Source of the DNA: Branchiostoma floridae
Taxonomy: Eukaryota; Chordata; Leptocardii; Amphioxiformes; Branchiostomatidae
NCBI RefSeq assembly: GCF_000003815.2
Contig: NC_049979.1
Span: forward strand, 29,455,582 to 29,519,581
Direction: 5' to 3'
DNA: 64,000 nt
Numbering within the stretch: the first letter of the stretch is position 1; every line of letters starts with the position of its first letter. The notes below the pieces were generated by a model. That model worked only from the letters and a program-made list of their open reading frames with translations. It had not been told where the DNA came from and did no database searches. Position numbers and translations under genes: made by a program. Positions 6,237 to 57,055 of this stretch are shown one piece after another.

Positions 6237-9200
6237 TCATCTTCCTTTCCCTTTCTTGCTTCCCTGTAAAACAACAAAGCAACATTGAGTCAACATCCAA
6301 AGGCAGAAGATTCCAGCAGCTCCAAAAATACCAAGACAGCACTGTACCCAGAAATTCCATTAAGTTCATGATCCAAAAGTCTAAACACTTAAATACAGCT
6401 TGGCTTAGTCTGTGTGACACAAATTCTGCTGTCCAGGGCTGTAACTGGCCACTCCCCACAGATCTAGAGACCAGCCGGATGTTGGGTGTGCTGCTATAAG
6501 CGAGATTCAATCAGGCTAAGCTTGGCTTGGAAGTGTTGGTTAGGATAAAGGGTAGTATTCTTTCATACAGTCATTTACAAAAACATTGATGAACTTTCCT
6601 GCTAAGATCAAACGTACCTTGTTGCTGAGTTTGAGCGCGTCGATCTCGTCCCTCTGCTGAGTGAGCTTGTCGTTCATGCTGCACAGGTGCTCACTCATCA
6701 TGCTGAGCTGGCTCTCATAGTTACTGGTGGTGGTGGTCAGCTCGTCCTGCAAGCCAATCATTCTATTTAAGATCATCTTTATTGAATCTTGGACAAAGAT
6801 ACACAAATTATAATTCTAGTTGTTGAAATGTCAATGAACGGCCTGTACTGAATATTGAAAACAGCTTAAACAGAGATTGGAATGTGACTGTCACAGCAAT
6901 AACAACTTCCTCTGTTCTGCTGAGTACAGAAGGAACAAACCCTTCTATGTTGCTCTGAAACAAAATTGGCCTCTGCAGTTACAAAAAAAGCTTCCAGGGG
7001 GCTGAAACCTGTGCACGACTTACCCTATCCTTATCAAGAACTATCTACCATATAAATATCATGACCATAGCATATCCAAAACACAAAATATCAAAACTAG
7101 AAGTTCTGCTGCAGTACAATAACATGCTCTTAGGGTGCCCAAAATCTTATCATTTTGAGCCTTCTCAAGCTATTGTGTGGACAGACATCAGCAGTACAAA
7201 CAACAACTACTTCAGTCTGTTTCCCGGAAGTTATAACAAGGGTGCCTAAGCATGTACACGAATCCTTTGGAATAGTAATATCAGAAACACTCAGAAACAT
7301 GCCAATGTAGCAGAAGCTACCAATTTACTTAAGGTTCGTGTGTATCTCATAAGGTTTGTATGTATCTCATAAGGTTTGTGGGTACCACATAAGGTTCGTA
7401 CATTTTCACAGTGATTTGTGTGCTTTTCATACAATTCCTACGTTTTCGCATACTACCAGTATATGCATTTCTCATAAAATTAGTATGATTTTCATAAACT
7501 TCACGCAAATGCTTAGGCAACCCTGTATAACATTTTTGGAACTGTGTACATGGGAAGGTTTAGACACACCTGCAGCTGAGCAATCTTCTGCTGGGCTGTC
7601 TGCAGCTCTTCCTGGAACTTCTCTTTAGCTTTTTCTGCCAGGCCAAGTCTCTGCTGAAGGGCACGGCACTGTTGGGGGACAACACAAGCTTCTGTTAATG
7701 TCCACACACATTCGGATTCTCCTGTCGAATTTTTCACAGATGAGCAGGCAAACAGGCATTTGCCGGTGGGTTTGGCAACCTGTTTGGACTAGGTGAGGTG
7801 AGGTGAGGGTTGGCAACCTGTATGCCTGACCTGCACATGACTTTTTCTTGTGAAGGAGAGGTGTGCAAATCCTTCTCGTCTACTGGCGCACTAACTAAGT
7901 CTCACAGGGACAGAACTGTATGACACGTGTGAGACGGCCCCACCAGATGCAGGTTTGTTGTTCGGAGTATCCGTCTCCTAGGAGTACTCCGACCAAGGAT
8001 GTAAGCTAAGGGGTTCCTCCTACCCCTGATTCGTGTACAAGCGGATGCCTCATGCCCGAACATGCCCTTAAGGACTGTCACTGCCACAAAGGCCTGTCAC
8101 TGATATAAGCCGAAGCAAGGTACCACACGCATGCACACAGATTCAAACACAAAAACATACACACTGACGCACACATACACATACACACACGTGCATACAC
8201 ATGCACATACACACACGTACACACACACACTGCCACTAGTTGAGCTACAGGAACACCCTTCAGCATATGGCATATACAATGTACCATAATGATTCCAGAT
8301 GTTTTGGGTGGATAATTTATTATAGCACTATTACTAAATTCTGTCTGATAACATGCTCATCCCCAATCTATCCTCGACACTTATACATTGTACCCAGTAG
8401 AACTGATCCCATAGCCCCTCCTACTTTAGTCAAAATCTGAAAAACAAAATTAAAATGTAAATGTCAGATGCAAATATTTAACTGCCATGAAGCTACTCTC
8501 TCATTGGTCTGGCCAATAATTGCCATGTCATCATTGGCTGAACTGCTAATTGTGACAGACAGTTAGGATTGGTCCATTGCATGACAGACAGATAGACACA
8601 GCACATAGACAGCAGCGATGAGATCATCACCTCAGAGTGGAAGTTGACAGCCTTGCTGTCTGCCTGCTGCAGCTGTGTGGTCAGCTCTGTCACTCTGCCG
8701 GTGAAGTGGGCTTTGATCAGCTGTTCCCTGGTCTCCGACTCAGAACTCTGGCACAGAAAGGTAAGAACTAGATAAGTTTAACATATATATGCAGCTCAAT
8801 AAATGACTTGCTCTGCAGCCTAGTTCAAGTATGTAAAAATTCTATTGGTCTGAACCAACATTTCAATGTCACTAAATTTACTTGATGTTGTTACAGTATT
8901 TCTATATATATAAATATTTGCAGCAAATCCTTTTATATTTGAGGTACAAAAACACTTTAATGCATGTTACAATGTGTTTTAAAAAGTTGTTCTATACAGA
9001 TCTTTTCAACGGAAAACGTGTTAAACTCACCTCATCTGCCACAGAGCTTTCCAGCTTCCCGAGCTGAAAGAAACCAATTATATAATTGTTACCTTGAGTG
9101 TATTCAGTGTCTATTATGGTTGAATTCAACTGTTAAAATCATTCAAACATGAGGTAAATATGGCAGTGGTCGAAATACTTTTTTCTGGTGTTCTGCAATA

Positions 9201-12200
9201 CTGCAGATTTTCACAATTTTCTTCTGCAATTTGGAAATACTTTCTGCAAATGCACAAGCCTCCAAACATCCTTCTCAATCTAATAATTTCTTGCATTTAG
9301 CTTTGCAATGCATAGCATTACTGTGATTCTTTATTCTCTCAATCTATTTTTAACTTCAGTCTGCAAAGATGATCCTTTTCTGCAGGGAAGTTATAATTTC
9401 CTGATACCACCATAGGTGTTTTATCCACCTCGCCATGACACTACGGGCTACTACAGCTTGAATTATACCAATTAATTTATAAATGTGCAATTAGTTACTA
9501 ACACACCTAGGCCTACTTCCACACAACATACTTTCTTCTGCAATCTTGAAAATCCTTCTGCGAATTGCAGATTGCAGATGGGTATTTCGAACACTGTATG
9601 GTAATGACCAATAACAAATACAGCAAAAGTGCCTGAAGGAGTAAAATTAAAACTCTCACCAATGAAGTCTCCACATCTGATCCTACTGATTTTCTGTCTC
9701 CAGGAGATGCAGTTTGTGTCGCCTCCACAGGGGGCGCTGGTGTCACCACCTGGCCTGCCTGCAGCTGCCTGAGTTCTACCTCCAACTGAGACACTCGCTA
9801 TTTATTTAAAAAAAAATGGAAGGACTTGTTTCAATATTCATTTTAACAAGAAAAGATTATACTATTCATATCAATCGTAAATACTGGATGCCATCCCATT
9901 TACTCTCACTCTATTGATATACCGTTGCAAATACATTGGCAATAGTTCACCAACAAACACCAACTGGTCGCCTCAAATGGCAAATTTTTTTGGACAATAA
10001 AAGAAAAAATATCGCAATTGGCAAAATGTCAGAAATGGGCAAGCACTTGACATGAATGAATTGTCAACAGGTGCAATCACTGCAAATCTCTTTTTAATGA
10101 ATCTTGATCATCGTACATTGCTTTATATTTCAAACACAACACTTTGATATCCAATAAAGTTATCTTATATCTAATTTGGGGCTGAAATTGAGGTGGCCAT
10201 TTTTGTTTGTAGAGGTCAGTACTATACCCCATGTGTCGCACGTCAGTGTGACCTCAAGGGACTATTGGCCCAAAATTTGCAAAGTTGCTGTAATAATTCA
10301 TCTTCAATATAGCCATGTGAAACACCCGTTTGTCCCAGCATGCACGCATGTGGGCTGGGCAGTTGTGTGAAGGGTTCTAGCTGTATACATTTAAGACCCG
10401 TGCTCTCCCAAAATCCGTGAACTGAACATGAGTCTGTAACAGTTCACCTGGATCAAGAAGAGTAACACCAACTGGTGCAGACCTGTGAGGTGCCCACTTA
10501 AGGCCTATATGTCACTGGGGCCCGCATTCTGTGAGGTGGCAATCGAACGTCGTACATACAACTCACCAACCGTTCGTGACCAGACGTTGTTTGCAGACCA
10601 CATACTTACACCTTATGCAACCGTGCTAGAGACATGCATTGAGCTGTACTCCCTCCCTGCTCTTGCCATTCCTTCCCCACGTTTTCAGAAAAAAGTGGCG
10701 GACATGGCCTCCCAAAAAACGTATGGACAAATAACACGTAGGGTGCTTACTAATAGGAAGCAACTGTAAACTCGGCAGGATGGTACAGAGGTTACCAGAT
10801 CCCAGCCATACCTTAGTCTCCTTCTCCAGTCGGACCTGCAGCAGTTGTGCCTCCAACATCCAGTGTTCCTTCTCCTGCTCCAGACCTCGCATCTTCTCCT
10901 GGGCAGTTGTCAGCTGGAAGGCATTAAAGACTCTATCAGGGAGTTTTTAAACATTCCCTTGCGTAAAAAGGACATTCTTAGATGTACTGTAAATCTACTT
11001 AAAGCTTACGGAACTTGAATTTGTCTCAGCGTAGCAAAAATTAAGAATTCAATATGTCTTTGAATACAATGGGGCAGCCAAGAATTGGCCAATATTGACC
11101 ATTAAATTTTTCTCAGCATAGCAAAAATCAAGAGTTCGAGGTGTCTTTGAATTAAAGGGTCATTAGCTATTATCTCACTCTAAAGGTAGCCTTTTTTGAG
11201 AGTGTAGGGGCAGTGGGTTGCTATCCACTGCACAAAGGACACAGTATTGGAAGCCGGAGCCCAACCTTTTTCTTCCACTGCCTTTTACCTCCCCAACCAA
11301 AGTTAAGTACTAGTACCCATTTTTACACCTGGGTGAAGTGAGGAAAATCATGTGCCTTTTGCATCAGTGGACTTCTGAGCCACATATGCCACATGACACC
11401 ATCTCTACTCTCATTGACTATTACAACAGATGCCACATGACACCATCTCTACTCTCATTGACTATTACAACAGATGGCAATATCCCCCAAAAAACAAAGG
11501 AAGTGTGTGGTTCACCTGTTGTGCTAGCCCCTCCCTACTCTCTGTGGAGCTGAGTAGAGTTCTCCTGTTCAACACTGCTGTCTTATAGGGAACAGACTCT
11601 GGGCAGGGCTGTGGAGAGAGGGGCATCCTTTAGGTCTTATTATATATGTCATTGGTGAGGCAAACATAGACTTCTCTTTGTGTACAATAGTTACATCATA
11701 TGTAAAGAAATGCTTGAAGACCATTTGTGCATTGCAAGCTATAAAAGCTATTCAATAGACGAATTTGAACAACATATAATTGTTCTTGTCATATGGGGGG
11801 GGGGTGCTCGCCAACTGTCCATGTCATTGTGTATGTCTGAAAATAACAAAACAAGTTTGAACAACATTCCCTGAACCCGGAAGAAGCCAGTCTTTGATTA
11901 CCGCCCTGACTGATTTCCAACATGTAAGTAAACACAAAAAAATGAATTTTCTATGACTATGGTATTTTATGAAAATGGGGAAGGGGAATAGTCATTGTCA
12001 TTGTATAGAGATATCAGGAAACATTTTCCTGCATAAGTGCAGGTACTGACCCGGTGAAAGTGAATACCCATGCGATGGCTAGCTACGAGACAGTGGTCGG
12101 GTTTGGGGAATGTTGAATGTGCGAACGCGTGCTATTATTTACGGACATGCCCCAAGACAAAGACAGTTTCTGAGCAAACTCACCCTATGGCAAGTTCATC

Positions 12201-15200
12201 TTTTAGATTAAAACAGACTCAACCCATAAAGATTAGTCCCACCCTCTTGAGCCTGCTGACGTAAGAGGTGGCTCGGTCCCTAAGGTCCGTCACCACTGGG
12301 GAGGACACGGGCCCGTCCGTGTCACGACACAGGCTCACGCCCCGCGTACGGTACCCCGCACGGCTCACGAAAAACTCCAGGTGGCTGCTGAAGAAGGGGG
12401 CGAGCTGTGTGTGGGGAGAGAACGATCATGCAGAGAACGTGTCATTCACTATGTATTGTATCTACTAAATACATAACACTAGTTCACCTTTTTCCGCTGG
12501 GTAACCTATATTCGTTGTGTTTAACCACACGGTAATAAGAGATATCAACTCGACAGACGGTGGTTTCAAGTTGTAATATGTTCAAACTTTTGTAGTTTGA
12601 GAATATCGTCCGTCGACGTGATACCCCTAACTACTCATTTTTCAAACGCAACGGATATAGGATACCCTGCGGATAAAGGTGAACTAGCGTTAGATAAGTA
12701 CAGCAGTTAAAACCAGTTCCAAGACCATTGCATCTACATATCACCTTTCGACCTTGATTGTTACCATAGATAGTGGAAATGCATTTGAGTGCGGTAAGCA
12801 GAATAATTGGAATGTTCATGGCTGTTTCAAGTTCAGTTTTTAACAAATTAGTTGAATAACAGTAAATCTAAACTAATAGAAACCCTGGCACCAATGCAGA
12901 CAGCCAGTTGTTAACAACCTACTTATTAAGTAAGCAGCTTGGCAAGGGTGCTACAGATGGACAGCAAAGTTGCCTCCAACACATCATGATATGTACAAAC
13001 TCTGCTACGTACATGTGGACAAAGAGATAGACGGGCAGAAGAAAAACTTTCGTGGTGGTTTTGAGTTTTCGTGGTGACCAATTATTATGAAAATGAAACT
13101 TAAAGCCATAAGTTTTCCAGCACCTACCTTGCCTGTACATGACACCAGTGCCACCAAGGATGACACCACACATTCATCAGTTGTCTTCAGCTTCTGTTGA
13201 GGAAACAGACAGAATTTCTCTACACGATGTCTGCAAAATACTTCAGTGAAAACAATGTATCTGCATCTGTATCTGTATCTACATGTATATAGCCGGTATA
13301 ACCTAGTCTCCAAGCAGACCCAACGGTGCCTTAGAGATAGTATCAAAGCTCGCAAAGGAGAATAGCCGGCCAAAGGGAGATAGCCGGCTAAGGGAGTCAA
13401 ACGGGCACCTGGTGCCGCTATACTTAGTCCCTGGCCAGCTTTGATACTATTTCTAAGGCATGGATGCCTCTGTGAAAATTCAAGCGTCCGAAACTGCCCG
13501 GACGGCGTCTACAAGCGTCCAATGGCGTCCGAGCGCGTTTCAGACGTTCTGGACGCGTTCATTGCCGTCCGAAACGGCCGCGGACACATCGTGAGCGTCC
13601 GTGCCGTTCTGTCAGTTTTTATGGTGAACGCCCGAACGGCTGAAAGACCTTCCATTGCCGTCGGAGACGGCCACTGATGGGGCTATAAAATACTTAGTCA
13701 CCAGACGCCGGCAGACGGCTGCGTCTTTTCTTATGATCCCCACGGGAAACATGACGTTTTAACTTCTGCACATGCGCCAATTTCAGCGGGTGAATTCGAA
13801 TTTCAGACCGTTGAACACTCCGGCGGTTGCAGGACTTATGTTCAGAAGGTGACTATTTCTGTGGATTTCATGTCCGTTTGTTAAATTTTGCGCACTTTTG
13901 GACCAAGGACTTCACGTCTAGACGTAGCAGCTGATGTTTGTACGACATTGTGCTGAGGTTGGGTTTACGGCGATGACTGTATCCGTTATTTATACTAAAA
14001 AGAATGTACAAAAATTATTTGTCGTGCGCCGACAAGGGGGAAAAATTATTAATACTACTTACTCGAAGCAGCAAACCTTGGACAGCAGAAATCACAGATG
14101 TGACAGACGTCAAAAGAAGCAGCGGTTCTTCCGTTAGCTGATTGTTGATACTTTGCAGGCGCCGGTAAGTGAATACTTCGCATTTTATTCTAATTTTTTG
14201 TACATTCATCTGTTGCAAAGTTTACCGACGACTTGTTGTTACGGGTGCCCTCCCCACATACGCGAAGAAATGATAAAATTTAGGATCTTGCTTTGATGCC
14301 ACAAAATAAAAAGAATTATGAACACGTTGTAGAATACTTGTCAAAAATATCTGTTGTTTCTATTAAGAATGATAATGCTGTTAAAATGTAGATTTAGACA
14401 ACAGATAATGAGATAGCACCTACCGATTTTGCCGGTGCCAATCAAAATCTTAGTCGGCTCTTCCAACTACTTGGGGTTAGGAACTTATGAAACGGAAGAC
14501 TTTATTTCGCTACCTCGAAATAAAAAAAATGACTTATGATCTTTGTAGAAAATTTAACGTTATTTCACATTTATATATCCAGTCTTTAGCAAATACTGGT
14601 GCAATTAAAATTTACGATAGAAAATTTCAAACGTCCTGTATTTAATTTACCCTTGATGTTATGTGGGCTCGTCCATTCTGATGTAACGTGTCGGCACGGC
14701 GGCACAAAAAGCCGCGGACACGATTGAAGGCCGGATTGAATTTCGTACATGTAGCAAAGTTGATTAAACGCCGCGGAGTACGTGTAAACAATTTACGAAG
14801 AAATTTGTTCAAGTTGTGTTTGATTTTAGCTAAACCTGACGGCCCGGTGGTGGGTGGTCTTCTACAATTCACTGCCTGGCTGAATATTTGTTTGTTTGGT
14901 ATGTGGGAACGCTTATCCCTAGAGGCCATAAAATCATAGCCGTGACCGGACGCCGTCAGAAACGGCGTCCGGACAGCCGTCTGCACACGTTCCAAATTAA
15001 ATGCACCGGCCCGTTATGAGTTTCTACTGCACTGCCTGACTAACTAAAACTGTGTCTTGAAGAAAAAATATTTTGCTAGGAGTTTGGCCCAGATATTAAC
15101 CTTTAATAATATAGCGATGACTGCCTCTTGGCCTTTCATTCCATTACTTCCATTACTTACTTTCATTCCATTTTCTGTCGAATTTTACGATCTGTAGTCC

Positions 15201-18200
15201 CCCCGTGGGAAGGCGTGGTGGAGGCTACCGCCCGTACCAGCGGCCTGGATTACGCCGTTTATGCCCGTCGCAATCGGCGTCCGATCCGTCCCAGCAGCCT
15301 GGATTACGTCATTTACGTCCGTCGCAATCGGCGTCTGGTCCGTCCGCAGAGACGTCTGTTCCCAGCGGGGGGCCCGCCCGACGGAGCGCGGGAGCGTCCG
15401 GCTGCCCGCTTTCAGACGCCGTCTCGGACGTCCCGAACGTCCGACCGGACGCGTCTAAAGTGCCAATCTAGACGCGTCCAAGCGTTTGTTATGCCGTTCG
15501 GACCGTCTTGGACGTTTCGTCGGGCGTTCAAAAGCCCGTCCCATGCCGTCCGCCGCCGTAACCGTCCAAAGCGTCCCAATAATTTAAGACGCCTTGGACG
15601 GTTGTCGCAAACGGCGTTTCGCCGTCTGAGACGCTTGAATTTTCACAGAGGTGGGTCTGCTTGGAGACTAGTTATAACTGCCTTATGGCGTAACACACCA
15701 GCAACTGTTATCTACAGTTGGTACTTTTAAGAATTCCTCCCTGGCTAAACTGGCATTTTGACCTTTCATTGTATCCTCATTAATTACTTAAGGCAGAATT
15801 GTTTTCACCTAATAAAAAAAGAGAATTATGACAAATTTTTCAGTTTGATATAGGTAAGAAAACCAAGGTTCTGACCTGTGTTGCTGTGGGAAGTTGATGT
15901 TCCAAAGACACCTTTGTGTTGTAATGCTTGGAGATCTCTGTGGAATAAAGAAAAATCATGTCACTCAAGGACAAAAGAAACAAGGTAACAGTACAAACTA
16001 CATGTATGTTTTTGCCTGAATGTGAAATTGTCTATGGTATCCTATTAGAAAATTTAATTTTAAGACAAACCCACCTTTTAACACCTCATGAAGCTGGTTG
16101 AGTCCTGCAGCCATTTGAGTGAAGAAAGCTGCCTGATTGGTCCGTGGGTGTTCCCTGGATGACTTACCTGCACAGGTGGAATAAATATTGTCAGCTTTGT
16201 ACATGTGTGGATAGGGCCATATAGTTCTTTACACCAGCACATATACATTGTAGTTCTTTTTTGTTTCTTAGCTATCTTTAAATAACTATGGGTTTGCAAT
16301 GCTAACAGCTACAAACTTAAGGACTCAAGACAAAAAGTAAGACTGTTTTAAAATTTAGCAATTTCAGTGCAAGTTGTGACTTAATGCAATCTTAAAATAA
16401 AATGACAAATGTGCACTTATTTGTCTTAAATTGACACACATAATGCACATATTAATATTCTACCTCCTCCATTCTGTGTAATGCAGTTAACTGGTCTAGA
16501 TCAAGAAAAAGATGACTTCATAGCAGGGGTGAAAACAAGGAGACTTGTATGACACCTACTTGCAGCAGCTATAAGTGAAAGGTAGTTGTCCAGTTTGGAC
16601 AGGGTGGCGGTGAGTTTCGGGAGCGAGGCGTGAAGTTCCATGTTCCGTGCCTCCAGTGTGGCGGAGCAGGTGGACACGGCACACTCCTCTTCCAAACTAC
16701 GCGGGAAAAAATCATGATGGAACAATCTAACTAATAAGGTAATGGCATGGTCACTACCAACGGTATGCTGTTGTAATGCTTAATATTGTATAATTTTCAA
16801 GAAAACTATTGTAAATGCATTTATATTTACGTGGATTTAATTTCTCAGTAGCGGGAAAAAGGACTATTCGAGAAGGTTTAATGTTTGCGGTTACCGTAGC
16901 ACCATGCACTTGTAGTCTCTTACTGCCATGGAAAAAAATGTTTGCAGTGGTTTTAAGCTACGGTGAAGTGTCCACCACAAAAAACACGAACATAAAACCA
17001 CGTGAACATTTCAGCATTTACAGTACGACAGAAACAAATGCCGCAAAGGATCTAAGACGCCCTTTTGGTAACAAGTCAGCTGGATTTTGTACGACGCATA
17101 AATGACTATGCCAAGAATACCACTAGTTTGTGAACGTACAACATTTGTACAAGAAATGTGCCCTAGCATGTTATGACTGTTTCACTCTCAAACTGTTGAC
17201 AACCGACATCTCCAACTGATATATGAAATTAAATGCACTGCTGATAATGATAGGCACGATGAAACATAGACAGCCATAATGGCTGTGAAATTATCGTGTC
17301 AGTAGGCACCAATGTCACACAATAGCAACAACAACATCTACAGCATTAGGATAGCGTTAGACACTTTCATAAAGGCTTTATGAAACTCATCTAGTAATCA
17401 AGAAGAAAGTCTTTTGTGCTGAAAAGATGCAATCTTATTCATTTTTTGCAATATCAACATCATAACAACATACCTTCTAAGCTGGTATGGGAGGAGTTTC
17501 TCCATGTAGGCAACAAATGAGTGGAACTTCTCTGAAAAATCCTGTATCCCTGTCGCAGTTTCCTAGCAAACAGAGAGCAACATGCATTAGGGAAGAAGTG
17601 CTGACTGGACAATATTTGTAAGTCTTTTTCACACTCACTCACTCCGGCAAGCTCGCTCAGAATCTCTAACCTCCATAGCAGGCTCTCTAGGGCCTTTTGG
17701 GGCTCATAATACACTTTTGCTGGCCATTACTTTTTGTACTGGGTCGCTGATGGCTGGCCTTTTCTGACTGCCGGCCCTGTCGAGCCTGCATGGAAACGGC
17801 GTATGAAAGTGATATTAAAAACGATTAGCCATTCATGGGCTTTATTAACACACACGTTAGGAATAATTCACAACTCAGTGAGAGGCAATTCGCAATCATT
17901 TTACAACTCGGGCTTCAGATGGGGAAACCCCCATATGTCACTCGCTACGCGCTACGCCCAAGCAAAGGCATCAGACAGGCCGAAAGAACGTCGAACTGGT
18001 AAGTTTGCGCTTCTGTATTTTTAAAAAGCCGTTTGACCCTGAAACCAGTAGAGAATTGTCGGGTAATTGCACACGGGGCGTGACAGCGCTCTGTCCGGTG
18101 GAGATGCGTGTAGTTTACTAACCGTCCACAGGAGGCACCTAGGCTGGAAATTCACACCTCCTAGTTAATTGCCCTACTATCACTTTCATACGCCGTTTCC

Positions 18201-31741: not shown

Positions 31742-31747
31742 CAATAA
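31742..31747 (+). promoter_or_regulatory. Candidate polyadenylation signal of TMEM223
   Basis: AATAAA lies about 340 bases after the stop codon. Several weaker ATTAAA variants occur closer, near 31480, 31512 and 31558. Confidence 0.35.
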
Positions 31748-31803
31748 AATCGAATTGATCAGGAACTTGAGGAAGGTTGAACAAAAAGCACAATTTTGTT
31801 ATA

Positions 31804-31940
31804 CCTATTGAGGTCACTTAAATGGCGCCAAATGGCAGCTTGCTTCAGCCCCTTGCAATTTAGCCCTGCCTATTGTAAGCTCCTCGCAATTCAGCCCCTG
31901 GCTGAAAAGACTGAGTAGTCGGCCCACCCAATAACAATAT
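31804..31940 (+). repeat. Dispersed repeat, copy 3 of 3
   Basis: It is nearly collinear with 19692-19841, sharing AATGGCAGCT, CCTATTGTAAGCTCCTCGCA, ATTCAGCCCCTGGCTG and CCCACCCAATAACAATA. Confidence 0.7.
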
Positions 31941-41500: not shown

Positions 41501-44500
41501 TTATGCTATCAGGTTCCCTTCTCCTCTGCACTAGCTACATGCTTATTTTGCAGGCAATGGCTAGAATCCATTAGTTGCAGGTCATGCCTGTTAGTTTTGC
41601 TGCTACAGCTATTTACCTACAGAGCAGAACATTACTACGCCACCCTCATCTAACCACCATTCCTTCAACAGTATGAGGAATCGTCTATTCGACATCTCTA
41701 TCTTTGTCCAAGCAGAAAACTATGGTATACTCTAAGTGTAAGTGATGTAAAGGAAATTCAGTTCAATTTACAACAATCTATGGAATACTGTAAGTATAAC
41801 TATAAGTAATGTTGAGGAAATTGAGTTCAATCCACAACAATCTACAAATGCATCACAATTAAGTATGTATTGTCTACCTCTCTAGTATGTACACTAAGAA
41901 GAATATATAGTCTCTTCTATGTATATTATGTGCAATAATATAGGACCATGACAGTCAGCACTTGTTCCATTAATTATTGCTAAGCTATATGCCACGTAAA
42001 AAATAGAGACATCGTATTGTAATAAATTACCACAAAAAACAGAAAGCAAGTGTCTTTGCAATAATGAGTGCATCCATTAGAATAGACGTGTTAAAGTTCA
42101 CAATCTAGAATCTGAAGTCAGCTTTTGTGTTCTAGGCCATGTCAGCGATTCATTACTTGGGCCTTGTCACAAACTGTCTCATGGGTCAACAACTAGGAGA
42201 AGAGGTCAAATCTACATGTAGTCTGGAAGTAAACTGTCTAATTGTGCCCCCCTCCCCCTTCTGAGATCAGGTTTTCTGCAAACATACCTCCACAAGAAAA
42301 ACCTACAATTGGCCATTTGCATCTTAGCTGATTTCCGAGGGAAAACATTTTCTATAAGAAATTTCAATAATGGTAAAAGGTAGAAGCACTGAAGTTCATA
42401 CTATGAAATTTGGATATATAATACATATCATTTTTGCCATATTCACAGAAAAGTTTATCTTTGAGGTAAAAAATGGCTTTTATGAAGTATATAGCGGAGT
42501 AGGTGGACTTGGAAAATATGCTTTTTGCGGAAGAAAATGTCAACGACCTCTTTCGTAACATGCGTAAGTGAAGGGTCCCTATGTTAAAGAATAAACTACC
42601 TGCAATCAAACAGAACCCGGAACCAAAAATATCTCTCTTACTGGCTTCCCACAGATGATGCTGACGCACGCAGAAATTGAATCTCTCCCCCTTAACGCCC
42701 TCTTTCAAACAACGCTAATCCAGAAGCACATAACTACACTACGTTAGTGCTATAAAAAAATCAACTTTCCAAGAAATCTCACGCTGATACGGCCTCCTAA
42801 GGGCAGCTGATACTTCTCTCTACTCATGTGTTGACGCAAGTGCGACGTCAGATGAAAAGTCTCCCCACAGAAGTTGTGTTGGCTGCAAAATTAGGTTACC
42901 CGAGGAGGCCGTACCAGCTTGAGATAGCAAAGGTGTAGGCTTTGTGTTGAGCACATTATGTTTGTATGGATCAATGGCTGACTAAACAGGTGGTAATACC
43001 TGGATCAATGTTCTCCGGTGTAGACAGCCTCTGAAATGGGTAGGCTTGGGGATGATACCCTGAAACAAACATAACACTTGTTAGGTTAACCATGCGGACA
43101 AGATTGGTACATTCTGTGACATTCTTCACATTCTCTGACAAAAATTTGGTTATCTCAGGACAGTTTTTAATCTGTATGCATCAAAGATATAAACAGAAGA
43201 ACCTGAAACTATGTCAAAGATCATGTTGGCATTGTATCAAGTTCAGTGACCCAACCATTAACCCGTATATTGATTGTTCTATCAATGTGGCCAAGGATGT
43301 AATGGACACAGCATTAGTCTGAATGTTGAAAATATTCCTACATCTAACTTTCTATATTGCAGATAGCTTTTATAGTGGGGGGAGGGTTCACTACTGGAAT
43401 AGGGGTCAAATCATTCAATAATTCTTCTGTTCTTTGTAAAACAATTTTTTCTCAATAAAAGTATGCCCTTGAAAATTCAAAAGGTGCTGCAAGTTGTTGC
43501 CATAGGTGTGTACTTAATTTGAGTTTATTGAACGGATATATGGAAAAGGGAAATCGAGAGCAAGATGATGCGACAGTTTTATGATGGATGCTAATCCTCT
43601 TTTTCGGTGGGTAGGGATTTTCTTTCTTATTTATCTTTTTTTTAATGCTCGATTTCAGCCGAGACGATCCTAAAAATACTGGTAATTTCAACATCATATT
43701 CTAGTTATGCAGAATGATTATTATACCCATTGCATCTGTTGTACAAGGCTTCAATTTTCTATTTCTACTGAAATGAGAACACATTGGAAAAAGGTTTTAT
43801 AATGTTTTTGTCATTTGAATATGTCAGATGAAAAATTTTATGTCCCTCGCCAATGCTACCAATCAACCCAAAATAAAACTGGGTTAGGCAAGTTTTGGCT
43901 AAGGGTCATTCGGAAACAAAACACAGAAATGTGGGTGTTGTTGCCTGTAATTCCAGGTCTAAACCACCCCAGCTGTTACCTAGTTACTCTGACAACTGGA
44001 AAATGATACCCAGACACACCATGAAGTAGATAATCAACCCATTACTGCTCCATAATGCCTACCCTTACAAAAATCAATACATAAAATCCCAGGACACCAT
44101 CTGTGTGCTGCACTTTGGCAGCCAGAATTTTGTAACTGCCCTCTGTATCACCTCTCAGGCTGATCTAGGCTTGACCCTGGACTTTTATCTAATACAGCCT
44201 TCCTGCGTCACATCACTCAATTAGTAAACGATATCAACAACTGGAAATTACATGATAGCATTTTCCATGACGACAAATTCTATCAACCAACCTATCCAGC
44301 AGAAAACAATTCCGTCAGCTAACGATTTAGTAACGAGAAGAAATTGAATGCTTTGGAAAACATGTCCACTTTTAGGTGTGCACAGTTCTGGTGCGTAGCT
44401 GCAGTTAAAACGTGCCTAAGGCAAAGAAAAACACTTGGCGAGTCTAAATAGCTGCTGAATACAGGATCTTGTCGAGCTATTCACACCCAAAGTGGACACA

Positions 44501-47500
44501 ATGTGGCCAGGACAAACAAGCCAGAAAATCAAAACTACTGACCGGCGTATGTCAATAGCTACACGCCACCAAACAGTCCTGTAACCAATCAAACAACACC
44601 GCTATCCTGTATCACCCCATCTTTGTTCGGCCGGACAGTTTACAATCGCCATGGAAACAGTGTACATATCGCCGTGGTGACAGACTCGGTGGGCATGGCT
44701 ACGGAGACACACTTCCTTGTCAGGTGCCCCTGCAAAGAGACCTCATGCATACAGCCTCCATGTCTTTGAACTCCTTTCAAGCATGGCGACTAAAACGACC
44801 ACATTATGACTTGAGACAAATATACTCTCATGCCACTCTTACTTAACCCTCACAGAAAGCATACAACATTTTACAGCCATGAATTTCCACAAAGTAAACG
44901 TTTTCTTCAATTTTTTGACACCGTTTTCCCAAATGCGACGGACAATACACCGACGTCACAGCTTGTGCTAAACTTTCATCCATTGTAAACCACACCTTTC
45001 TAATAGAGTCCAGTGGGATTAATCACGACAATATAAAAGGCACCTGCACCATATGGTAGTTGTGTAGGCACAGCCTAGATAATGGAGTCCTTCAGACTAC
45101 TTTTCAAGATTGAATCTATTCCACATGCCCAACACCATAGAGACCCAACAAAAACACTGGTCTCTCTGGCCAACAGGTAAATATTGGGCCCCTTGGTTTG
45201 ATAAAGATCCTTTTTAACTCGTGAATAATTACACCATTGCAGGGGCACTTTCAAACATCAAGAGGTTTGGGAAACTGGGCAAGTACAAAATATTTGGCAA
45301 TGGATCAACTATTCGCAAATTTCAGATGACCTGGAAACCAGAGAAAACCATGTCCTGTCCAACAATTTTTTATCAGTTATGATTTACCCTTCAAAAATAA
45401 AATGAAGGTTGCAGAGTACCATATTTGTAAACAAACCCCAAAACTTTAAACTCCAATTTTTGAGCGATATAAGAAACAAGAAGGAAATGTATATGGGGGT
45501 TCTACAATGAATTCAGGAGGAGTATAAATTCTATGTGAAACATTCAACTTTCTTCCTAAGCAACAATTTGATGTTGTAGTACTATAGTACGTCATGTTAA
45601 ACAGTGAGTTATTGGACAAGATGACTGAGAAGCTTGCATACACCTGACCTTTATAAAAGATTACATCAAAGTTGACACAACAAGCAAACATGGGCCAGAC
45701 CTTTTTCTTTTCTTTCACAGTCGATAGGCTTCCTTGCCGCAATGTTGTTAGGTATTCATTGCATTCCTTACCTGTATGAATTGCCAATGCCACTCAGGGA
45801 GTTCTATAAAATGTCCTTGCTAAATTTGTAAAAATGCCAATGACATTGTCGCTACAAACTTGTATAAATGCTACTGACGTTGTCTCTAAAAACTTGTGAA
45901 AACACCTACAAAATAGTTCTGAATCAGTGAATAGAAGAACTGTTGTCCACAAAAACAGTATGTATAGTTTTGCATCCTTTCTATAACTGTAGCACCACAT
46001 TGCTCTTGTTTTTCCCCCATGCGTCCGTGCAATAATCTCAAGTATGCACTTCAACGTTAGCAACAATTTGCAGCACCTTTTGAATCTTTAAACAAATATT
46101 TCAGTTTATTTGAGAAAATGTAGTAATAAGACAAAAACCTTCAGTAACAAGTTTGCTTTCATTCTGCAACAGTACCAGCTTTCAGTCTAGTATCAGGATG
46201 TTGACATGTTTACATAAACAAATCTGGGAATACGCCAGTGATGACCCTTAACTCTGCCACGTTTTCCTCCTGTTTGTATTTTCACACCATGTGATCAAAA
46301 ATGTTTCTCATCTTTACCACAATGAAATCTCGCTTTTTTTAACTTTTACTCTTAGTTTCTTTAACTGTACCAGAGAAAATAAACAATTTAGTATGATCTA
46401 CACCACTTTGTATCTAGATCTGGCATTCTCTCCATTTGTCAAACAAAAATATGGTTTGTACTATTGTAGTTGTAAGAATTGCACACATACCTGCAGCTCC
46501 ATTGTTGCTGATGTATAGCCCTGTTGGGTATGGGCCCGTCCTGCAAGACCACACAAGACAACAAACATGTCAGCAAGAAAACTTCCTAACGCCTATGCCC
46601 CAAGGGCGAATCTACACAACTCTTGTTTTCTTCAACCAAAATGTCCATACAATACATTCAAGGATATGTTAACATTTGGAATGTACTGCTTTCAATGTTA
46701 ATTTTGCAGCAATGTTAACATACTATGGCATATCCAACTTCAAACAACTTACGAGGAACTGCGGAACCTATAGTCTATTGTTGACTCTTTTGATTACATT
46801 ATGTAACAATACAGACAACACCTGTTCCCTTTGAAACTTGCGTTCTTTCCATTTTTACGTGTTCTTTCTTCTTCTATGCATTCTTTCCTTATTCTTGGTT
46901 CAACCTGACACTATATGGTACATACACTGTCCAACATGTTGTAAAATCAAATCAATTCCGTTCCTTGATTAAAAGTGGGATCTTTCTTTCCTGAAACCTA
47001 ATCCATGAACAGACATAAAGAAGAATTGGGTGGGGATAAATGCCCTATGTTTACCAAGTCTGGCTTGAGTGATTGATTGATTGATTAACAGCACTTGTAC
47101 TGTACAAGTAGTGTCCTACAGTTAGTTAACTGATAGCTTTCAAAAAGACAATTTTTAATCTTCCTCTCCCTAGCTATGCTGGTTTACACTATTACAGCCT
47201 TTATCATACCGTTGTCACTTGAACCCCCATTCCTTTAAAAACTTTCCGAAACATCTCTGCAATTTTCAGAGCATGATGCGCTCTTTGAGAGTTATGTAAT
47301 TAGCTTTCTGGTGCTTTTAGGGGAGGTATTTTCAGGGCGCATTCTTCTGGATGGATATGGCAACTGACATGACAAGACAATACCCATCTCTTGCCTGCAG
47401 GCGTGTTTATACAGAGACAGTTTACACGCTTTTCTGCAGATGAAAAAACGCACAAGCTTTCAAACAAAAACTCACCCCAAACTAGACTAAAACAATGTAC

Positions 47501-50500
47501 TTCACGAAATAGAGGGTAGAATGCAAATTAAATTGACAACTTTTTTTTCAGGCTTAAAAGACGCTGTTTAACTCTAATACAGAAAAAGACTTCTTATAAT
47601 ATTTTCATGATATTCAACCTCAACAAAGAAGCATAATAAAGAGGAGTGTTATTACTTTTCAGAGGTCATTGGGTCACCTATCTAGAATTTATCTTCAGTA
47701 TTTTCTAATACACAGCAATAGCAAATTTATTGATAATACCAAACAACTAACATACAAAGAGCTTGTCTACATAATGCTTTGGCCGGTAGCCCATATTTCA
47801 GTACCTACTGAATACTGTCATACCCTCTTGAAATACTTGAGTGGTGGGAACCCCATTTGACTTGTCACCTTTGACCCTGGTACTGAATAACATGAAAGCA
47901 AATGCCAGCCTTCACACCCAGAGGGCAATGCACTGTAATAATTTCTAACCTCTTTGTCAAGACGTTGCTTACAAGTAAATGTTGATGACATAATGATATA
48001 TCATCATCTGTTTGATGATATAATGATATATTCTTTTACGTCAAAATCTTTAAGGGTTCAGACAGAAAAAAATACTCACTTCGCACCAGCATGACACTGG
48101 CTCTGTGCTACAAACTCAAAATCTTGAAGTTCCATTTAAATTGCACGCTGTTTCCGCAATCGTCAGTAAGACACAATTTACTATTTGGAAATGCCAAACT
48201 GCATTTAATGCGGAGCATTTAGCCACTTATAAAAAGGCATGTGCCCTAAATTAGTAGTTCTTTCCCATCCTTCCAAATGGCCAGGCCCAAAAGCAGCACT
48301 AGTGGATGCCTCAAATGGTGCGAAGAAATCAATACAGAATATAGCCCAACATTTTCCCAATCAATATGCTGGCAGCGAGAGGAAAGCGTGCGTGGGTTTC
48401 GCAAAACGACACGATAGCGGCGAAGAATCGTCACACACTAAGCTAGAATAGACACCATACTAATACATCGGAATGGGAGTCATTATATCATAAACCATGT
48501 ATTTGATTGAATGATTCATATGGTATCTAAAAATAAGTCATTTATCCAAATTTGTGATCAATATAATAGGGTGAAGCACCATATTTGAGTCCTAAGACCT
48601 ATACTGAATTAACAAACATGACAGGTCAGAATTAAACTGCACAGAGTGTGACCATGTTGGTGACCATGTTGGAATGTGAGGGACTCACCCCGAGTGTGGC
48701 AGCTGTTGTGGGGAGGGGGGCGGTGTGGTGAAGATGTGGTGGTACGGGTGGATGGGTGTCTTCTTCAGCGCCTGCAGTAGGTTGGGTCTGTAGGCTGGGT
48801 CGATCATCCATAACGATCCCTTCCCAATGCTCTGTAAAAGATTTAACAGACAGTCCAGTTAGTAAAATATACAAATTACGGTGCACTTCTTCTGTTGTTG
48901 TACTGCATACCTGTACACAAGAGTCAAACTCGTTCAATTAAAAAATAAATCACCTAAACATCAGGAACCTTTTACAGACTTGCAAAACCTTTCCCTGACT
49001 CATAGCCTGCCTTTTCTTCTAAACGATCGAACCTTCCATAGATTGTGAAATTTGTGCTGGAAAAAGCTGTTTTGAGTTTTCTATTGCATTGGGCTTTTGT
49101 GTTTATTACTGGATATATATAATTTTTTGCCAACATGCAATTTGAAATGTAAAACCCCAAAAAAATATTTCTCGTAAACATACAACAGAGAGTAGTACAC
49201 AATAGCATATGTAACTTAAAGTAAGCCAAATTAGTTGCTAAAAATTTACATTTCATTCAGAATTCCTGAAGCTATCATAACTGACATAATTCTTGGCTCC
49301 ACAGTGCTGCCTGGAATCTACAATCCAGAAATGTTTCCACAGCAGTGCTTTTTAAGAAAGTCAGTCCTTGGATTTAAACTAAGTTAATCCCTGCTGTCGG
49401 CTACCCGAGTTAATCACTATTGGCAGATGATTTCTTAAGCAGATAATTTCGTTGGCTTCTGGTAAACAAAGCTGATGTGGTTTCTTACCTTACCTGCTGT
49501 CACAAATACAGTAAGACAACCTTTCCTTTTCAAACAAAGTTGGACTTACAAACTTCTTAACATGCTAATGCTATAATGAACCTGCACAAACTGTTAAGCT
49601 TGTGTTTCAAAATAACATAATACAATGCAATTAGTGGTTACCTAAAAAGTAGATTATGTACAGGAGGTGGATTAAAGTAATTGAATGTTTGACAGAAAGG
49701 AAAACAATGTTGCCCCCCCCCCTTATTCAACCAAAGTATTTTCTTCCACACAATGCTATGTGCTTGTATAACAGACCAGAACTTGACTTCTAAAAATGTT
49801 TAAACTGACTTAACCTGGTTGACTACTGTATAAAGTTTTGCATGTACAATTTTTCAAACAGCATGTAACATTCATGCCATCGTGCAAAAGTATTTCTGAT
49901 TTGCCATGGATTTAGGTCTGGACCTGAACATGAATTGGTAACCTGAACCTAGTATTACGGCCGTGTGGCTCGTTGGATACACCCAATCCCTTGATCTCGA
50001 AGTTAAGCAACGCATAGCCCGGTCAGTTCTTGGATGGGAGGCCACACAAGGACCATCGAATGCTGTAGCCTGACCAAAAAATTCCACGAAATCATTTTCC
50101 GGGAGAGACGTAAAACTGAGGTCCCGTGCTCGAGGAGGTGCCTCGACCACGTTAATCAGCCTCATTACTCAACACATTGGGTATATACTGGCTGCAAATA
50201 CACCCGATATTATTATTATCATTATCATTATTACAGAAGTCTCACATTGGGTACATACTGTCTTGACTTCAAAACTACAAACTCTGGTACTTCTTGATAT
50301 AAAATTGTGCTGAATAATTGATACATCAAAAGTGCCTAATCTCCTTATACAGCATTAGCTTCTGCACAACAGGATGTGGTACGTTCCTTGGGACAGACAC
50401 TCTGACCTCCAATATAGTTATCCTGCTTTTCTGGCATTTAGGGCTTCTAATTTGGGTGCAATCCAAGACATTCACTATGTTTTTTGGGTGTTCGCCAGAT

Positions 50501-53500
50501 GTCAATAATGTAAACATTTGAGGCGTTCACAAAACATGGGAGGGCAAAAATCAGTATTTCTACACAGTTCATTTTGAAAGTGAAAAACGTAGGCAAAGAC
50601 AAGAAACAATAGTAGTTGTAATAGACTTTTTTTACTGTTCTGTCAGTACTATCGCAAATAAAACATGCACAGGATTTGTTTACACTGTCTTCCTTGTTGG
50701 GACACAGTTTTGGGTTTCATTTTAGTGACTGCCAACAAAGTGCGCTACAAAAAAAACACACCTAAGGTATCTAATTGTAAATCAACACTCCTTCTCACCT
50801 AACCTTGCTACTCCCCACCCTTTTGAAGATGTCCTTGCCAAGACATGATGAAGTTGTTTTTGTCTAGCTTGCAATCCGTCTACAAACAGCCAAAGATCTT
50901 TTTTCAGTCTAACAGCTTTAAATGCCAGATATTCCGCAGTTATAACATCCAGTCCCTAAAAACCAAACATGGAGCATACCAAGTGAACCTTGTACTTTCT
51001 CTTGTGACCTTAAAAATAGAGAACAAGCAAGACCCTTGTTTCGGTGGGGTCAAAAACCTCAGTAACAATGGGCAACAAGTATCCATTTCGACACCGCAAA
51101 GCTATCATTTAACCTGAGTGGTCTCACGAAGACACTGTTACAGTAGATATAGCTGTTGTCTAAACCCTTATCTAGACTGTGATTGTCTATCTTTTTCCCA
51201 TGGATTTTTCTGGTGATAACTTTGTGGTGGGTAATCATACCACACCCAACTTATAGGTAGTCCTTGGGCTTGTTGCAAGACAACACTCTCTTGCAACCTT
51301 GCGACATCAATTCCAGTATACATGATCTCACGTTACTATGAATAAGGGCGTTAAAATATAGCCTTTTTGTACATGCCCAGTTTTTTGTCAGATACAGAGC
51401 ACTGTCCAATATTTCCAATACGAAACCATCATACTGTTACAAAATAAACCTAGAACTTTTCATTTGGTAGTGTTTGCCAAATAAGCATACCAAGTTGGAG
51501 TATCCTGTTCCCGAGAGATAGCACGCTGTAATAACAAACAATGGGACGACGTATTTTCTTAGGACTTTTGCTGTTTGTTTCAGACTACGCCTCTTACGTT
51601 TGAAATGCCCGCTATTATCTAAATATATTACTTTATCTACCTCTCATACCCATGTCCCTCAATTTTGGAAGTATAGTTTAGTAACAACTAAATCTGTATC
51701 AGATCTATTTTTGGTGAGAAAATACGAAGTGCCCTTGCCACTTGAGTTCTGTACTTTCAAGTTAACTCCCACGAATATCTTCTTCTTCAGGCAAGTGTAT
51801 GTCAACTTCAAACTGTCATCCTGTCCTGACTCCTCTGCCCCCTGGCACACATGATGTTGTCCGACCGTGCCACGTTGCACCCACATAATTGGCACCTTTG
51901 CCGTTGCCATAGCAACAGGATGCCACGACCTTCTCCGTCACCCTGACCCTCCCAGCGTTTGCTGGCGCCCCTGTTCCGGGCCTCCACTCCAAACCCTCCT
52001 GATTTATAGTCTCACCCTATGTAAACCCTTTCCTAGAGGTTATCTATTCCCTACAATGGAAGGTTAACAAACGTCTGGAGGAGGCCCCAGATATTGGCCG
52101 ACTGTTTGTCTGGTGCTGACCTTCCCCACTCAGAGGGTTCACCTTTCATCAACAAGCTTAGTTTTACTCACTTACAAGTAGGAACTGGACTCATGCACAC
52201 TGGACATTCAAATATATCTTATAACCTGAAACCATGGACCATAGAACCAAGGAAACCTTGCTGAAACATCAGTTTCACGATCGTTTGCTCACAACATTTC
52301 AGATAAAAATTTTGGCTATCACACCAGAATGTCAGTGACGACAGGAATTTATGACGCTGTGTCCGAAATCATTTTCAAACATGAAAACACTCTTGTATGA
52401 TGAAAGAAAACACTTCATCTTCACACCATGCGCATCAAAACTCAAGATCAGATAAGCCGGCAGCCATCTTAGAAGCAAATAACTACAAAATTAGTAATTA
52501 AAAACCAATTTTTGTAAAGTGCGATTACGTGATTTCACGAGCGACTTGAGAAGAGCACAAACATCATTACCTACGCGTTTCGGTACATTAATGAGACCAT
52601 TGAGACACTCGACTGAAATTTCCAACTGAAAATCATCTCTGTGGGATTGCATGCGTGCTTGAGAGCATTTTATTTTTCTCGAGGACAGCTCTCTGAAAGA
52701 TAGAGGCTGATTTTGTTTACATGTCTGAGTCCAAGCCTGGGAACTGTTAGTCTAAACATGACTAACTAGCTATGCATTGATCCTTGGGACAAGCTGAGGG
52801 CTGGGCAAACAACCACCATCTGCAAGGAGATGTTAGGAGACATCTGATCCCACCTGGTAGGGAAATTTACTGGGGAGTTCACAAGGCCACTGGCTTGGAT
52901 AGCAGCCAGGTTACCTCCATGCCTGTCAAAGTCTGGTGTAAAAACTGTGGTCATTATTAGGTAAACCTGTAATGGCATCAAAATAGCAGACCAACAGTGT
53001 TTGTCAGGACTTCTAAATGTTTTAAATTCAACCATTTTCGTGACATGTTTTTGTTTGGTTGCTCTAACCACGAAGTCAAACAAAAAAGCCGTATCTCACA
53101 AAAGACACCCAACAATTATGGCATCAAACGCGAGTAAATCGACTATGTCAGACTGACGGAAGACATTTTTGCCTGCGGCAATTTAACGGCTGGAAAAAGA
53201 TAGAACGCCGAACAATGACATGCCTATTCTCGGAGACAATCCGACAGACTTTACAAAAATCCGCCGTAACCCCCACGAGATCTCTGGACTCTTGACGCGA
53301 ATGTCAGTTGACAGTCTGGGCTGTAACTGCGTCAAACTGGTGTGTCATTAACGTCAAATTCTATTCACCTTTAAAACTGTCACTTCTGTCCAGTAGCTCA
53401 ACACTGTCATTATAAAAGATAGATTACTGACTAATTAACACAGCAGGTTTAAGCAAAACCACAACGATAACACTTACCTTCAATCAACACAACCTTTTAC

Positions 53501-54116
53501 AATACAATAAAATAAAAAAGGCACACACTAGACTCACCTGCCCTTTTTCCTTTTCCACTTTCTTGAAGCACTTATTCAGGGATAGGTTGTGCCTAACAGA
53601 ATTTTTCCACCCCGTCGGTGCGTTCACAAAATAGGGAAAGTGCTCCAGAATCCAGTTGTAGATTTCCTTGACTGGCAGTCTCTTACTTGGCGAGTCCTCT
53701 ATAGCCATGAATATTAGACAACTGAAGGAGTAGGGAGGTTTGCTATTTCTGTGCTGGTGCGCGTCGTACGGTATGTCCGCCGGGGTGGGCAGCGACGCCG
53801 TGGTGTGGTTGCTGGGTTTGAGGGGGCTCATGGTCCCCCCCATCTCTCTGGTGGGGCTGCCACACAGGCCGCCTCCCGTTTCCACATTTACAGACTTCAG
53901 CACGTCGCTGCTGTGAAGCCAGTTCAAGTTTGTCAGTTCGTCGTCGTCGATTGCACCTTTCTCTAACGAGATCGCGGGAAAGCAGCTCATGTTCAAGTCC
54001 AGGTCGGGGTTCTGTAGCGCCTGGGCGAGGGTCGTGCTCGGGCAGCTCTGACTTAGAGCGCTGCCTTCCAGGGCTCGCCGGATGATGGACCCTTCTGGCT
54101 TGCGATCCGGTGGCAT
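35510..54116 (-). CDS. FoxN2/3: Forkhead transcription factor FoxN2/3, eight coding exons, complete
   Basis: This is a nuclear DNA-binding factor, the single invertebrate counterpart of vertebrate FOXN2 and FOXN3 (CHES1). Coding exons, 5' to 3': 54116-53538, 48831-48689, 46540-46491, 43059-43000, 40740-40720, 37461-37393, 36867-36714, 36062-35510. All borders are GT/AG and phases close to 542 residues. The first coding exon begins at 54142 and has an in-frame TAA 15 bases before the ATG, which fixes the start. Landmarks: [18 protein letters not shown] (residues 58-75) and the forkhead from about 126 ([20 protein letters not shown]) with recognition helix [16 protein letters not shown] (169-184). 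The forkhead continues across the intron as [20 protein letters not shown]. Conserved C-terminal blocks are SEDHNYS, STSPTSS, SLGDSGF, PKKRP and DALLNLAGI, matching human FOXN3 GDPKEDHNYSS, DSLGDSGY, PLKKRR and GSLLHLAGI. A 5' untranslated exon must lie upstream and was not located. Confidence 0.96.
37047..37345. mobile_element. MITE with GGGCTYGAWATAC ends and GTGCAGGTA motifs
   Basis: CTGGGCTCGAAATACCACCT at the left is mirrored by GTATATCAAGCCCTG at the right. The interior holds repeated GTGCAGGTA/TACCTGCAC units in both orientations. The end resembles the hAT-like element at 9164-9596. It lies between the sixth and seventh coding exons of FoxN2/3. Confidence 0.65.
38440..39898. mobile_element. 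1.46-kb DNA element, TIR TACCGTATTTCTTC, GTGCGCG sub-terminal motifs
   Basis: TACCGTATTTCTTC-TAATAAACCGCGCAC at the left is mirrored by GTGCGCGGTTTAATGAAAGAAATACGGTA at the right. Extra GTGCGCG/GTGCGCA plus TTTATT units occur just inside both ends (about 38522, 39771 and 39850). The interior encodes no recognisable transposase. It contains AAAATGGCGGC and CpG-rich blocks near 39200-39420. It is in a FoxN2/3 intron. Confidence 0.75.
40720..40740 (-). CDS. FoxN2/3: 21-nt micro-exon of FoxN2/3
   Basis: The exon is flanked by TTTTCCAG and GTCAGT and keeps the frame between the exons at 43059-43000 and 37461-37393. It adds seven codons with GASIFQ at the core. Its length is a multiple of three, so skipping it would not shift the frame and alternative splicing is possible. 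Confidence 0.75.
41720..41842. repeat. Imperfect tandem duplication of about 60 bases
   Basis: CTATGGTATACTCTAAGTGTA...TTCAATTTACAACAAT at 41720 is followed by CTATGGAATACTGTAAGTATA...TTCAATCCACAACAAT from 41778. It is intronic. Confidence 0.8.
42783..42920. mobile_element. Small MITE with TACGGCCTCCT ends
   Basis: GCTGATACGGCCTCCTAAGG is mirrored by CCGAGGAGGCCGTACCAGC about 140 bases away. It is non-coding and lies about 80 bases from a FoxN2/3 exon. Confidence 0.6.
47070..47088. repeat. (TGAT)n microsatellite
   Basis: Four consecutive TGAT units lie in a FoxN2/3 intron. Confidence 0.8.
49955..50165 (+). mobile_element. 5S rRNA-derived SINE (SINE3 type)
   Basis: The head is a diverged 5S rRNA copy: TTACGGCCGTGTGGC, GATCTCGAAGTTAAGCAACG (internal A-box region), CCCGGTCAGTTCTTGGATGG (C-box region) and GAATGCTGTAGCC, in the order and spacing of 5S rRNA. 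The body GACGTAAAACTGAGGTCCCG, TGCTCGAGGAGGTGCC follows. It is similar to the 3' body of the tRNA-headed SINEs at 19437 and 27541. Mutations and the fused body show it is not a functional 5S gene. An (ATT)n-like tract follows near 50207-50235. Confidence 0.85.
51903..51916. promoter_or_regulatory. RFX X-box-like palindrome in FoxN2/3 intron
   Basis: GTTGCCATAGCAAC differs by one base from the perfect RFX palindrome GTTGCCATGGCAAC. Binding is not shown. Confidence 0.5.
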
Positions 54117-57042: not shown

Positions 57043-57055
57043 GTAACCTAGCAAC
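57043..57055. promoter_or_regulatory. RFX X-box-like site
   Basis: GTAACCTAGCAAC fits the X-box consensus GTNRCC-N-RGYAAC. It is about 2.9 kb upstream of the FoxN2/3 start codon. Confidence 0.45.

What the first reader, a model, noticed from the sequence alone, without database searches (positions are those of the whole stretch)
6237..54116. FoxN2/3 - PPP1R21 microsynteny shared with human 2p16.3
On the minus strand FoxN2/3 (54116-35510) is followed by PPP1R21 (28934-6237) in the same orientation. From memory, human FOXN2 is followed by PPP1R21 on chromosome 2p16.3, also in tandem. Retention of order and orientation since the chordate ancestor suggests a constraint, for example FoxN2/3 enhancers inside PPP1R21 introns. 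TMEM223, unlinked in human, sits between them here.
Basis: partly seen in the sequence, partly recalled or inferred. Interest (0 to 1): 0.75.

Follow-up and report, generated by a model that had tools for sequence, protein, structure and literature searches.

The report
Ancient FBXO11-FOXN2-PPP1R21 gene neighbourhood
Three genes that sit side by side in people (FBXO11, FOXN2, PPP1R21) also sit close together, in matching order and directions, in this lancelet-like animal, which suggests that something has held them together since early chordates.

Summary
On the minus strand FoxN2/3 (54116-35510) is followed by PPP1R21 (28934-6237). TMEM223 lies between them, but on the plus strand. The window is C1:29,455,582-29,519,581 of a 513,431,437-base assembly, a size that fits Branchiostoma floridae (recalled).

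Beyond the window's right edge (window coordinates 106826-124937, plus strand) lies an FBXO11 orthologue. So FBXO11-FOXN2-PPP1R21 is shared with human 2p16.3; a paper places SNPs between human FBXO11 and FOXN2, and human strands are recalled. Gene order is otherwise scrambled: GTF2A1, PPP4R3, TTC7 and TDP1 are on C1 but 5.6-15 Mb away, and no MutS match is on C1.

Shared descent is well supported and chance very unlikely. Cis-regulatory constraint (a genomic regulatory block) is the likeliest reason but untested here; enhancers inside PPP1R21 introns are neither shown nor favoured over the FBXO11-FoxN2/3 interval. Neutral retention is the main rival. A new member of a known kind.

The parts
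35510..54116 (-). FoxN2/3 gene: exon 1 54116-53538 (forkhead), exon 48831-48689 (forkhead wing), tentative exon about 37462-37418, last exon 36062-35510 ending in a stop; a middle stretch of the human protein was not mapped
   Evidence: Pfam Forkhead 9.3e-31; PDB FOXN3 2.1e-41; tblastn with recalled FOXN3/FOXN2; splice sites read
29840..31401 (+). TMEM223-like gene, two exons 29840-30320 and 31109-31401; head-to-head with PPP1R21 (905 bases between the ATGs), tail-to-tail with FoxN2/3
   Evidence: Pfam PF06979 5.8e-11 and 1.2e-26; tblastn with recalled TMEM223; splice sites and stop
6237..28934 (-). PPP1R21 gene: 19 coding exons modelled plus a last exon 6263-6237; three stretches of the human protein (about 183-200, 486-532, 600-660) not mapped, and the model's borders next to them were forced by the script
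54117..64000 (.). Window part of the divergent interval between FoxN2/3 and FBXO11. The FBXO11 orthologue lies outside the window on the plus strand: first mapped exon at window coordinate 106826, last at 124937
   Evidence: flank loci L015-L021

Best explanation
The window holds part of an ancient three-gene neighbourhood, FBXO11 - FoxN2/3 - PPP1R21, inherited from a chordate (or older) ancestor in the same order and orientation as human 2p16.3, with TMEM223 also lying between FoxN2/3 and PPP1R21 here (shown for this genome; human order partly from papers, human strands recalled). It most likely works as a genomic regulatory block: FoxN2/3 is the target, its long-range regulatory DNA lies in the divergent interval towards FBXO11 (at most about 53 kb) and perhaps in introns of FBXO11 and PPP1R21, and a break between the three genes would part FoxN2/3 from enhancers, so such breaks are selected against (inferred, not tested).
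For: All three genes are identified by domain and by collinear exons; no second copy of PPP1R21 or of a 73-residue FBXO11 exon was found in the assembly. [quoted passage not shown] In chicken FOXN2 and PPP1R21 stayed together although STON1 is 1.17 Mb away (PMC12108394, passages). The rest of the chromosome is scrambled: 4 of 5 neighbour-gene families that were answered are on C1 but 5.6-15 Mb away (GTF2A1 14.4, PPP4R3 16.1, TTC7 19.2, TDP1 35.1 Mb), and the fifth, MutS, has no match on C1. Order within amphioxus-vertebrate syntenic units is reported as largely scrambled (PMC7269912, passages). Human hints of distal regulation: ovary Hi-C arcs link FOXN2 to the rs13405728 locus (PMC8264658, passages), and SNPs around FOXN2/PPP1R21 are eQTLs for both genes and eight others (PMC10888713, passages). 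Random-placement estimate for the triple 2-5e-7.
Against: No conserved non-coding element, open chromatin or contact could be tested. The number of neutrally retained neighbours to be expected is unknown, so retention alone does not prove constraint. A survey of 49 animal genomes found that the vertebrate ancestor inherited only 70 blocks of three or more genes, fewer than the 110-124 seen in shuffled genomes under its loose definition (PMC8851819, passages), so such blocks are not by themselves evidence of selection. In the Hi-C paper the TAD of rs13405728 is listed with STON1, LHCGR and FSHR, not FOXN2 or PPP1R21. PPP1R21 introns here are not notably long. TMEM223 lies between FoxN2/3 and PPP1R21, so the interval tolerates gain or loss of a gene. 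FoxN2/3 is not clearly a patterned developmental gene: reliable localisation was not detectable in the hemichordate Saccoglossus (PMC4077281, passages). The FBXO11-FoxN2/3 interval holds stretches that look like transposable elements, by eye. The human eQTLs are not specific to FOXN2.
Confidence: 0.55

Rival explanations
1. Neutral retention: the three genes are neighbours by descent, but no selection keeps them so; rearrangement breakpoints happened not to fall there.
For: Some old neighbours must survive by luck, and whether microsynteny is functional or neutral is described as unclear (PMC8851819, passages). The block is short (about 119 kb from 6237 to 124937). TMEM223 lies inside it.
Against: Both junctions are kept with matching orientations (human strands recalled) while four tested gene families on the same chromosome lie 5.6-15 Mb away. 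In chicken FOXN2 and PPP1R21 are still together.
Confidence: 0.37
2. Co-expression: the genes are kept together because they share promoters or are expressed together, not because of FoxN2/3 enhancers.
For: PPP1R21 and TMEM223 start 905 bases apart in opposite directions, compatible with a shared promoter in this animal.
Against: TMEM223 is not part of the human neighbourhood (recalled), and the three conserved genes do not share promoters: FoxN2/3 and the first mapped FBXO11 exon are about 53 kb apart. Expression was not tested.
Confidence: 0.05
3. Chance: the orthologues came together independently in the two lineages.
For: A pair alone is expected 4-7 times per 10^4 gene pairs under random placement on one chromosome. 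Loosely defined three-gene blocks do arise in shuffled genomes (PMC8851819).
Against: The triple with matching order and orientation is expected about 0.002-0.005 times per 10^4 triples.
Confidence: 0.02

Closest known systems
Genomic regulatory blocks (target gene plus bystander genes kept together by long-range enhancers)
   Same: A transcription factor gene flanked by unrelated genes with a large divergent interval, retained in order and orientation over a long time.
   Different: No conserved non-coding elements or enhancer contacts have been shown for this block; FoxN2/3 is not a well-established patterning target.
Ancient metazoan microsyntenic pairs and blocks, such as wnt7-atxn10 (described in PMC8851819, passages)
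   Same: Neighbouring unrelated genes retained over long evolutionary times despite general scrambling of gene order.
   Different: Presence of this block outside chordates was not checked. Whether it is in the published list of Irimia et al. 2012 could not be checked (not held).
FoxL1-FoxC-FoxF-FoxQ1 cluster (described in PMC4077281 and PMC9539403, passages)
   Same: Deeply conserved linkage that involves Fox genes.
   Different: That one is a cluster of related Fox genes; this is a single Fox gene with unrelated neighbours.

Membership tests
Conserved microsyntenic block | Three or more orthologues, each separated by at most five intervening genes (definition used in PMC8851819) | tested here: met
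   FBXO11, FoxN2/3, PPP1R21 within about 119 kb of C1; between FoxN2/3 and PPP1R21 only TMEM223 was found, between FoxN2/3 and FBXO11 only uncharacterised or transposon-like ORFs by eye; human neighbourhood from PMC4456164. No gene prediction was run on the interval.
Conserved microsyntenic block | Same order and orientation in the compared lineage | tested here: inconclusive
   Order and strands shown for this genome; human SNPs 'between FBXO11 and FOXN2' in print, human strands and exact order recalled
Conserved microsyntenic block | Orthology, not paralogy | tested here: met
   No second PPP1R21 or FBXO11 exon match in the assembly; forkhead nearest to FOXN3 in the PDB, 145 against 99 bits for FOXN1. 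No gene trees were built.
Genomic regulatory block | Cluster of highly conserved non-coding elements spanning target and bystanders | not testable with these tools
   No second animal genome could be searched
Genomic regulatory block | Long-range contacts or enhancers of the target inside bystander genes | not tested
   Only indirect human data from papers
Genomic regulatory block | Target is a developmental regulator | tested here: inconclusive
   FoxN2/3 is a forkhead gene; a paper reports endodermal expression in an annelid, another no reliable localisation in a hemichordate

The most novel reading that the evidence does not exclude
FBXO11-FoxN2/3-PPP1R21 is a regulatory block at least as old as chordates, present before the vertebrate genome duplications, whose regulatory core is the FBXO11-FoxN2/3 gap (at most about 53 kb here, at least about 230 kb in human) with bystander introns on both sides; loss of FBXO11 and PPP1R21 from the FOXN3 copy (recalled) would then leave FOXN3 with the regulatory DNA alone.
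Probability: 0.4. Interest if true: 0.55.

Novelty: new member of a known kind. Interest (0 to 1): 0.42.

Why it matters
Gene order between amphioxus and vertebrates is largely scrambled, so a three-gene block kept in order and orientation marks a place where regulation may constrain the genome. It points to where distal control of FOXN2, and perhaps FOXN3, could be sought, and the FBXO11-FOXN2 gap carries SNPs associated with human Addison's disease (PMC4456164).

Tried and rejected
Rejected: that the linkage is only a pair (FBXO11 extends it); that the block is wider, as far as I could read. To the left are an EamA transporter (in the window, 2807-3926), then a sulfotransferase-like, an arylesterase, a PGAP4-like, an LRR (DRC5/TCTE1-like) and an RPAP1-like gene; right of FBXO11 are a rhodopsin-type GPCR, CILP-like genes and a sulfatase. 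Of these, EamA and arylesterase, LRR and GPCR rest on Pfam; the others were recognised by eye, and the RPAP1-like and PGAP4-like ORFs gave no Pfam match. None is a human 2p16.3 gene as far as I recall. The flanks hold masked or unknown bases (4,347 N left; 5,160 N right), only ORFs above a length cut were printed, and parts of the listing were cut.

Led nowhere: Rfam (0 matches); tRNA scan (0); one FBXO11 ORF without a Pfam match (protein 2); PDB search with one FBXO11 beta-helix exon (0 matches at 0.001); the F-box exon matched other F-box proteins only among 33; viral-contig scan with an FBXO11 exon (11 pattern matches, none confirmed). Nine answered paper searches, read as listings: 14 of 14 shown; 12 of 13; 5 of 5; 20 of 22; 13 of 13; 15 of 92; 15 of 15; 15 of 81; 12 of 34. 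Of the 15 papers holding two of FBXO11/FOXN2/PPP1R21 none is about synteny by title; I read passages of six of them (PMC4456164, PMC12075139, PMC11048332, PMC10888713, PMC12108394, PMC8264658). An FFKRNG peptide match is on the plus strand in a stretch with stops.

Not reached: searches for PF02207, PF02453, PF03451 and PF21636 did not complete.

Full report
What was claimed.

What is there. FoxN2/3 begins at 54116(-) with a forkhead exon (Pfam 9.3e-31; best PDB match FOXN3) and ends with a stop at 35510. Further exons are at 48831-48689 and 36062-35510, and tentatively at about 37462-37418 (E 5.7). PPP1R21 begins at 28934(-). Eighteen tblastn hits with E below 0.01 run in order on the minus strand. 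A 19-exon model has GT-AG borders except one GC donor after 21979; borders next to three unmapped stretches of the human protein were forced by the script and are not reliable. The nineteenth exon has a GT donor after 6618 and a last exon 6263-6237 follows. Pfam and PDB support the gene. Its PPP1R21_helical domain gave 4 matches in the assembly, all exons of this gene. TMEM223 (PF06979; TMEM223 rather than its relatives by alignment to recalled human TMEM223) lies between on the plus strand, 29840-31401.

Where it is. The window is G000:C1:29,455,582-29,519,581; the assembly has 513,431,437 bases in 431 contigs and C1 has 35,335,272 bases. This fits the B. floridae chromosome assembly, whose size I recall; the species is therefore inferred.

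I fetched 60 kb to the left and 170 kb to the right. On the right, plus strand, lies FBXO11: an F-box exon (Pfam 2.2e-19), beta-helix exons and the C-terminal UBR-like tail, collinear with recalled human FBXO11 in 20 places from 106826 to 124937, at 53-93% identity each. Its N-terminal exons were not mapped, so the gap to FoxN2/3 is at most about 53 kb. A 73-residue exon of it gave 2 matches in the assembly, both in this gene. FBXO11 and FoxN2/3 are divergent, as in human by recall. A paper on Addison's disease places five SNPs spanning 230 kb between human FBXO11 and FOXN2 and names MSH6, PPP1R21 and STON1 in the same region of extended LD (PMC4456164, passages). The block here is therefore FBXO11(+) ... 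FoxN2/3(-), TMEM223(+), PPP1R21(-).

Is it more than chance? Five families of human neighbour or paralogon genes outside the block (choice recalled) were answered: TFIIA/GTF2A1 at C1 14.42 Mb, PPP4R3 at 16.1 Mb, TTC7 at 19.2 Mb, TDP1 at 35.1 Mb, and MutS on C2, C4, C9, C15 and C17 but not C1 (14 matches). Chromosome-level linkage is kept in 4 of 5, at 5.6-15 Mb from the block, in line with the published statement that order within amphioxus-vertebrate units is largely scrambled (PMC7269912, passages). A rough estimate assuming random placement on C1 gives 4-7e-4 for the pair and 2-5e-7 for the triple. It assumes 1,442-2,404 genes on C1, extrapolated from an eye count in the 294 kb read, and at most two gene slots between neighbours, which was not established for the FBXO11 side. 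Against too strong a reading: in a survey of 49 animal genomes the vertebrate ancestor inherited 70 blocks of three or more genes, fewer than the 110-124 in shuffled genomes, under a definition that does not require order (PMC8851819, passages).

Vertebrate side. In chicken, one 112 kb region of GGA3 (9,487,340-9,599,796) holds FOXN2, PPP1R21 and COMMD1, while LHCGR, GTF2A1L and STON1 are at 8,224,869-8,317,160 (PMC12108394, passages). In cattle, FOXN2, PPP1R21 and FBXO11 appear in one candidate-gene list without order (PMC12075139, passages). Human strands are recalled.

How it most likely works. Shown: a three-gene block here that matches the human neighbourhood. Inferred: FoxN2/3 is the target of distal regulation and its neighbours are bystanders. 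Indirect human support: FOXN2 has Hi-C arcs in ovary to the rs13405728 locus, which by recalled coordinates lies beyond PPP1R21; but that paper lists rs13405728 in one TAD with STON1, LHCGR and FSHR, not with FOXN2 (PMC8264658, passages). SNPs around FOXN2 and PPP1R21 are eQTLs for FOXN2, PPP1R21 and eight other genes (PMC10888713, passages). These are not specific. Against: no conserved elements or contacts were testable, PPP1R21 introns are ordinary in size, and hemichordate foxN2/3 showed no reliable localisation (PMC4077281, passages). Neutral retention stays a serious rival.

Known or new. Blocks of this kind are well known. I found no paper on this one in nine listings, some of them capped, but the key catalogue (Irimia et al. 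2012) was not held, so it may already be listed there.

Noticed in passing
right flank, window coordinates 124657-124788 and 124821-124937 (L021): FBXO11 seems to have two tandem copies of its last coding exon (84% and 74% identical to the recalled human tail), possibly alternative C-termini.
   Followed up: no
28934-29840: PPP1R21 and TMEM223 start codons are 905 bases apart on opposite strands, a candidate bidirectional promoter absent from the human arrangement by recall.
   Followed up: no
right flank, window coordinates about 117382-121798: Long ORFs with reverse-transcriptase-like and tyrosine-recombinase-like stretches, by eye a DIRS-type retrotransposon, inside an FBXO11 intron.
   Followed up: no
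2807-3926: EamA-type transporter (Pfam 9.4e-17 on 3225-3926) whose reading seems to continue from the frame of 2807-3598, which gave no Pfam match; an intron or a frame break.
   Followed up: no
right flank, window coordinates about 136949-140065 and 207133-209670: Two CILP-like long ORFs, very alike by eye, about 67 kb apart on opposite strands, perhaps a recent inverted duplication.
   Followed up: no
left flank about -10384 to -9857 and right flank 195708-196331: Very similar sulfotransferase-like ORFs on both sides of the block, about 206 kb apart, same strand, by eye.
   Followed up: no
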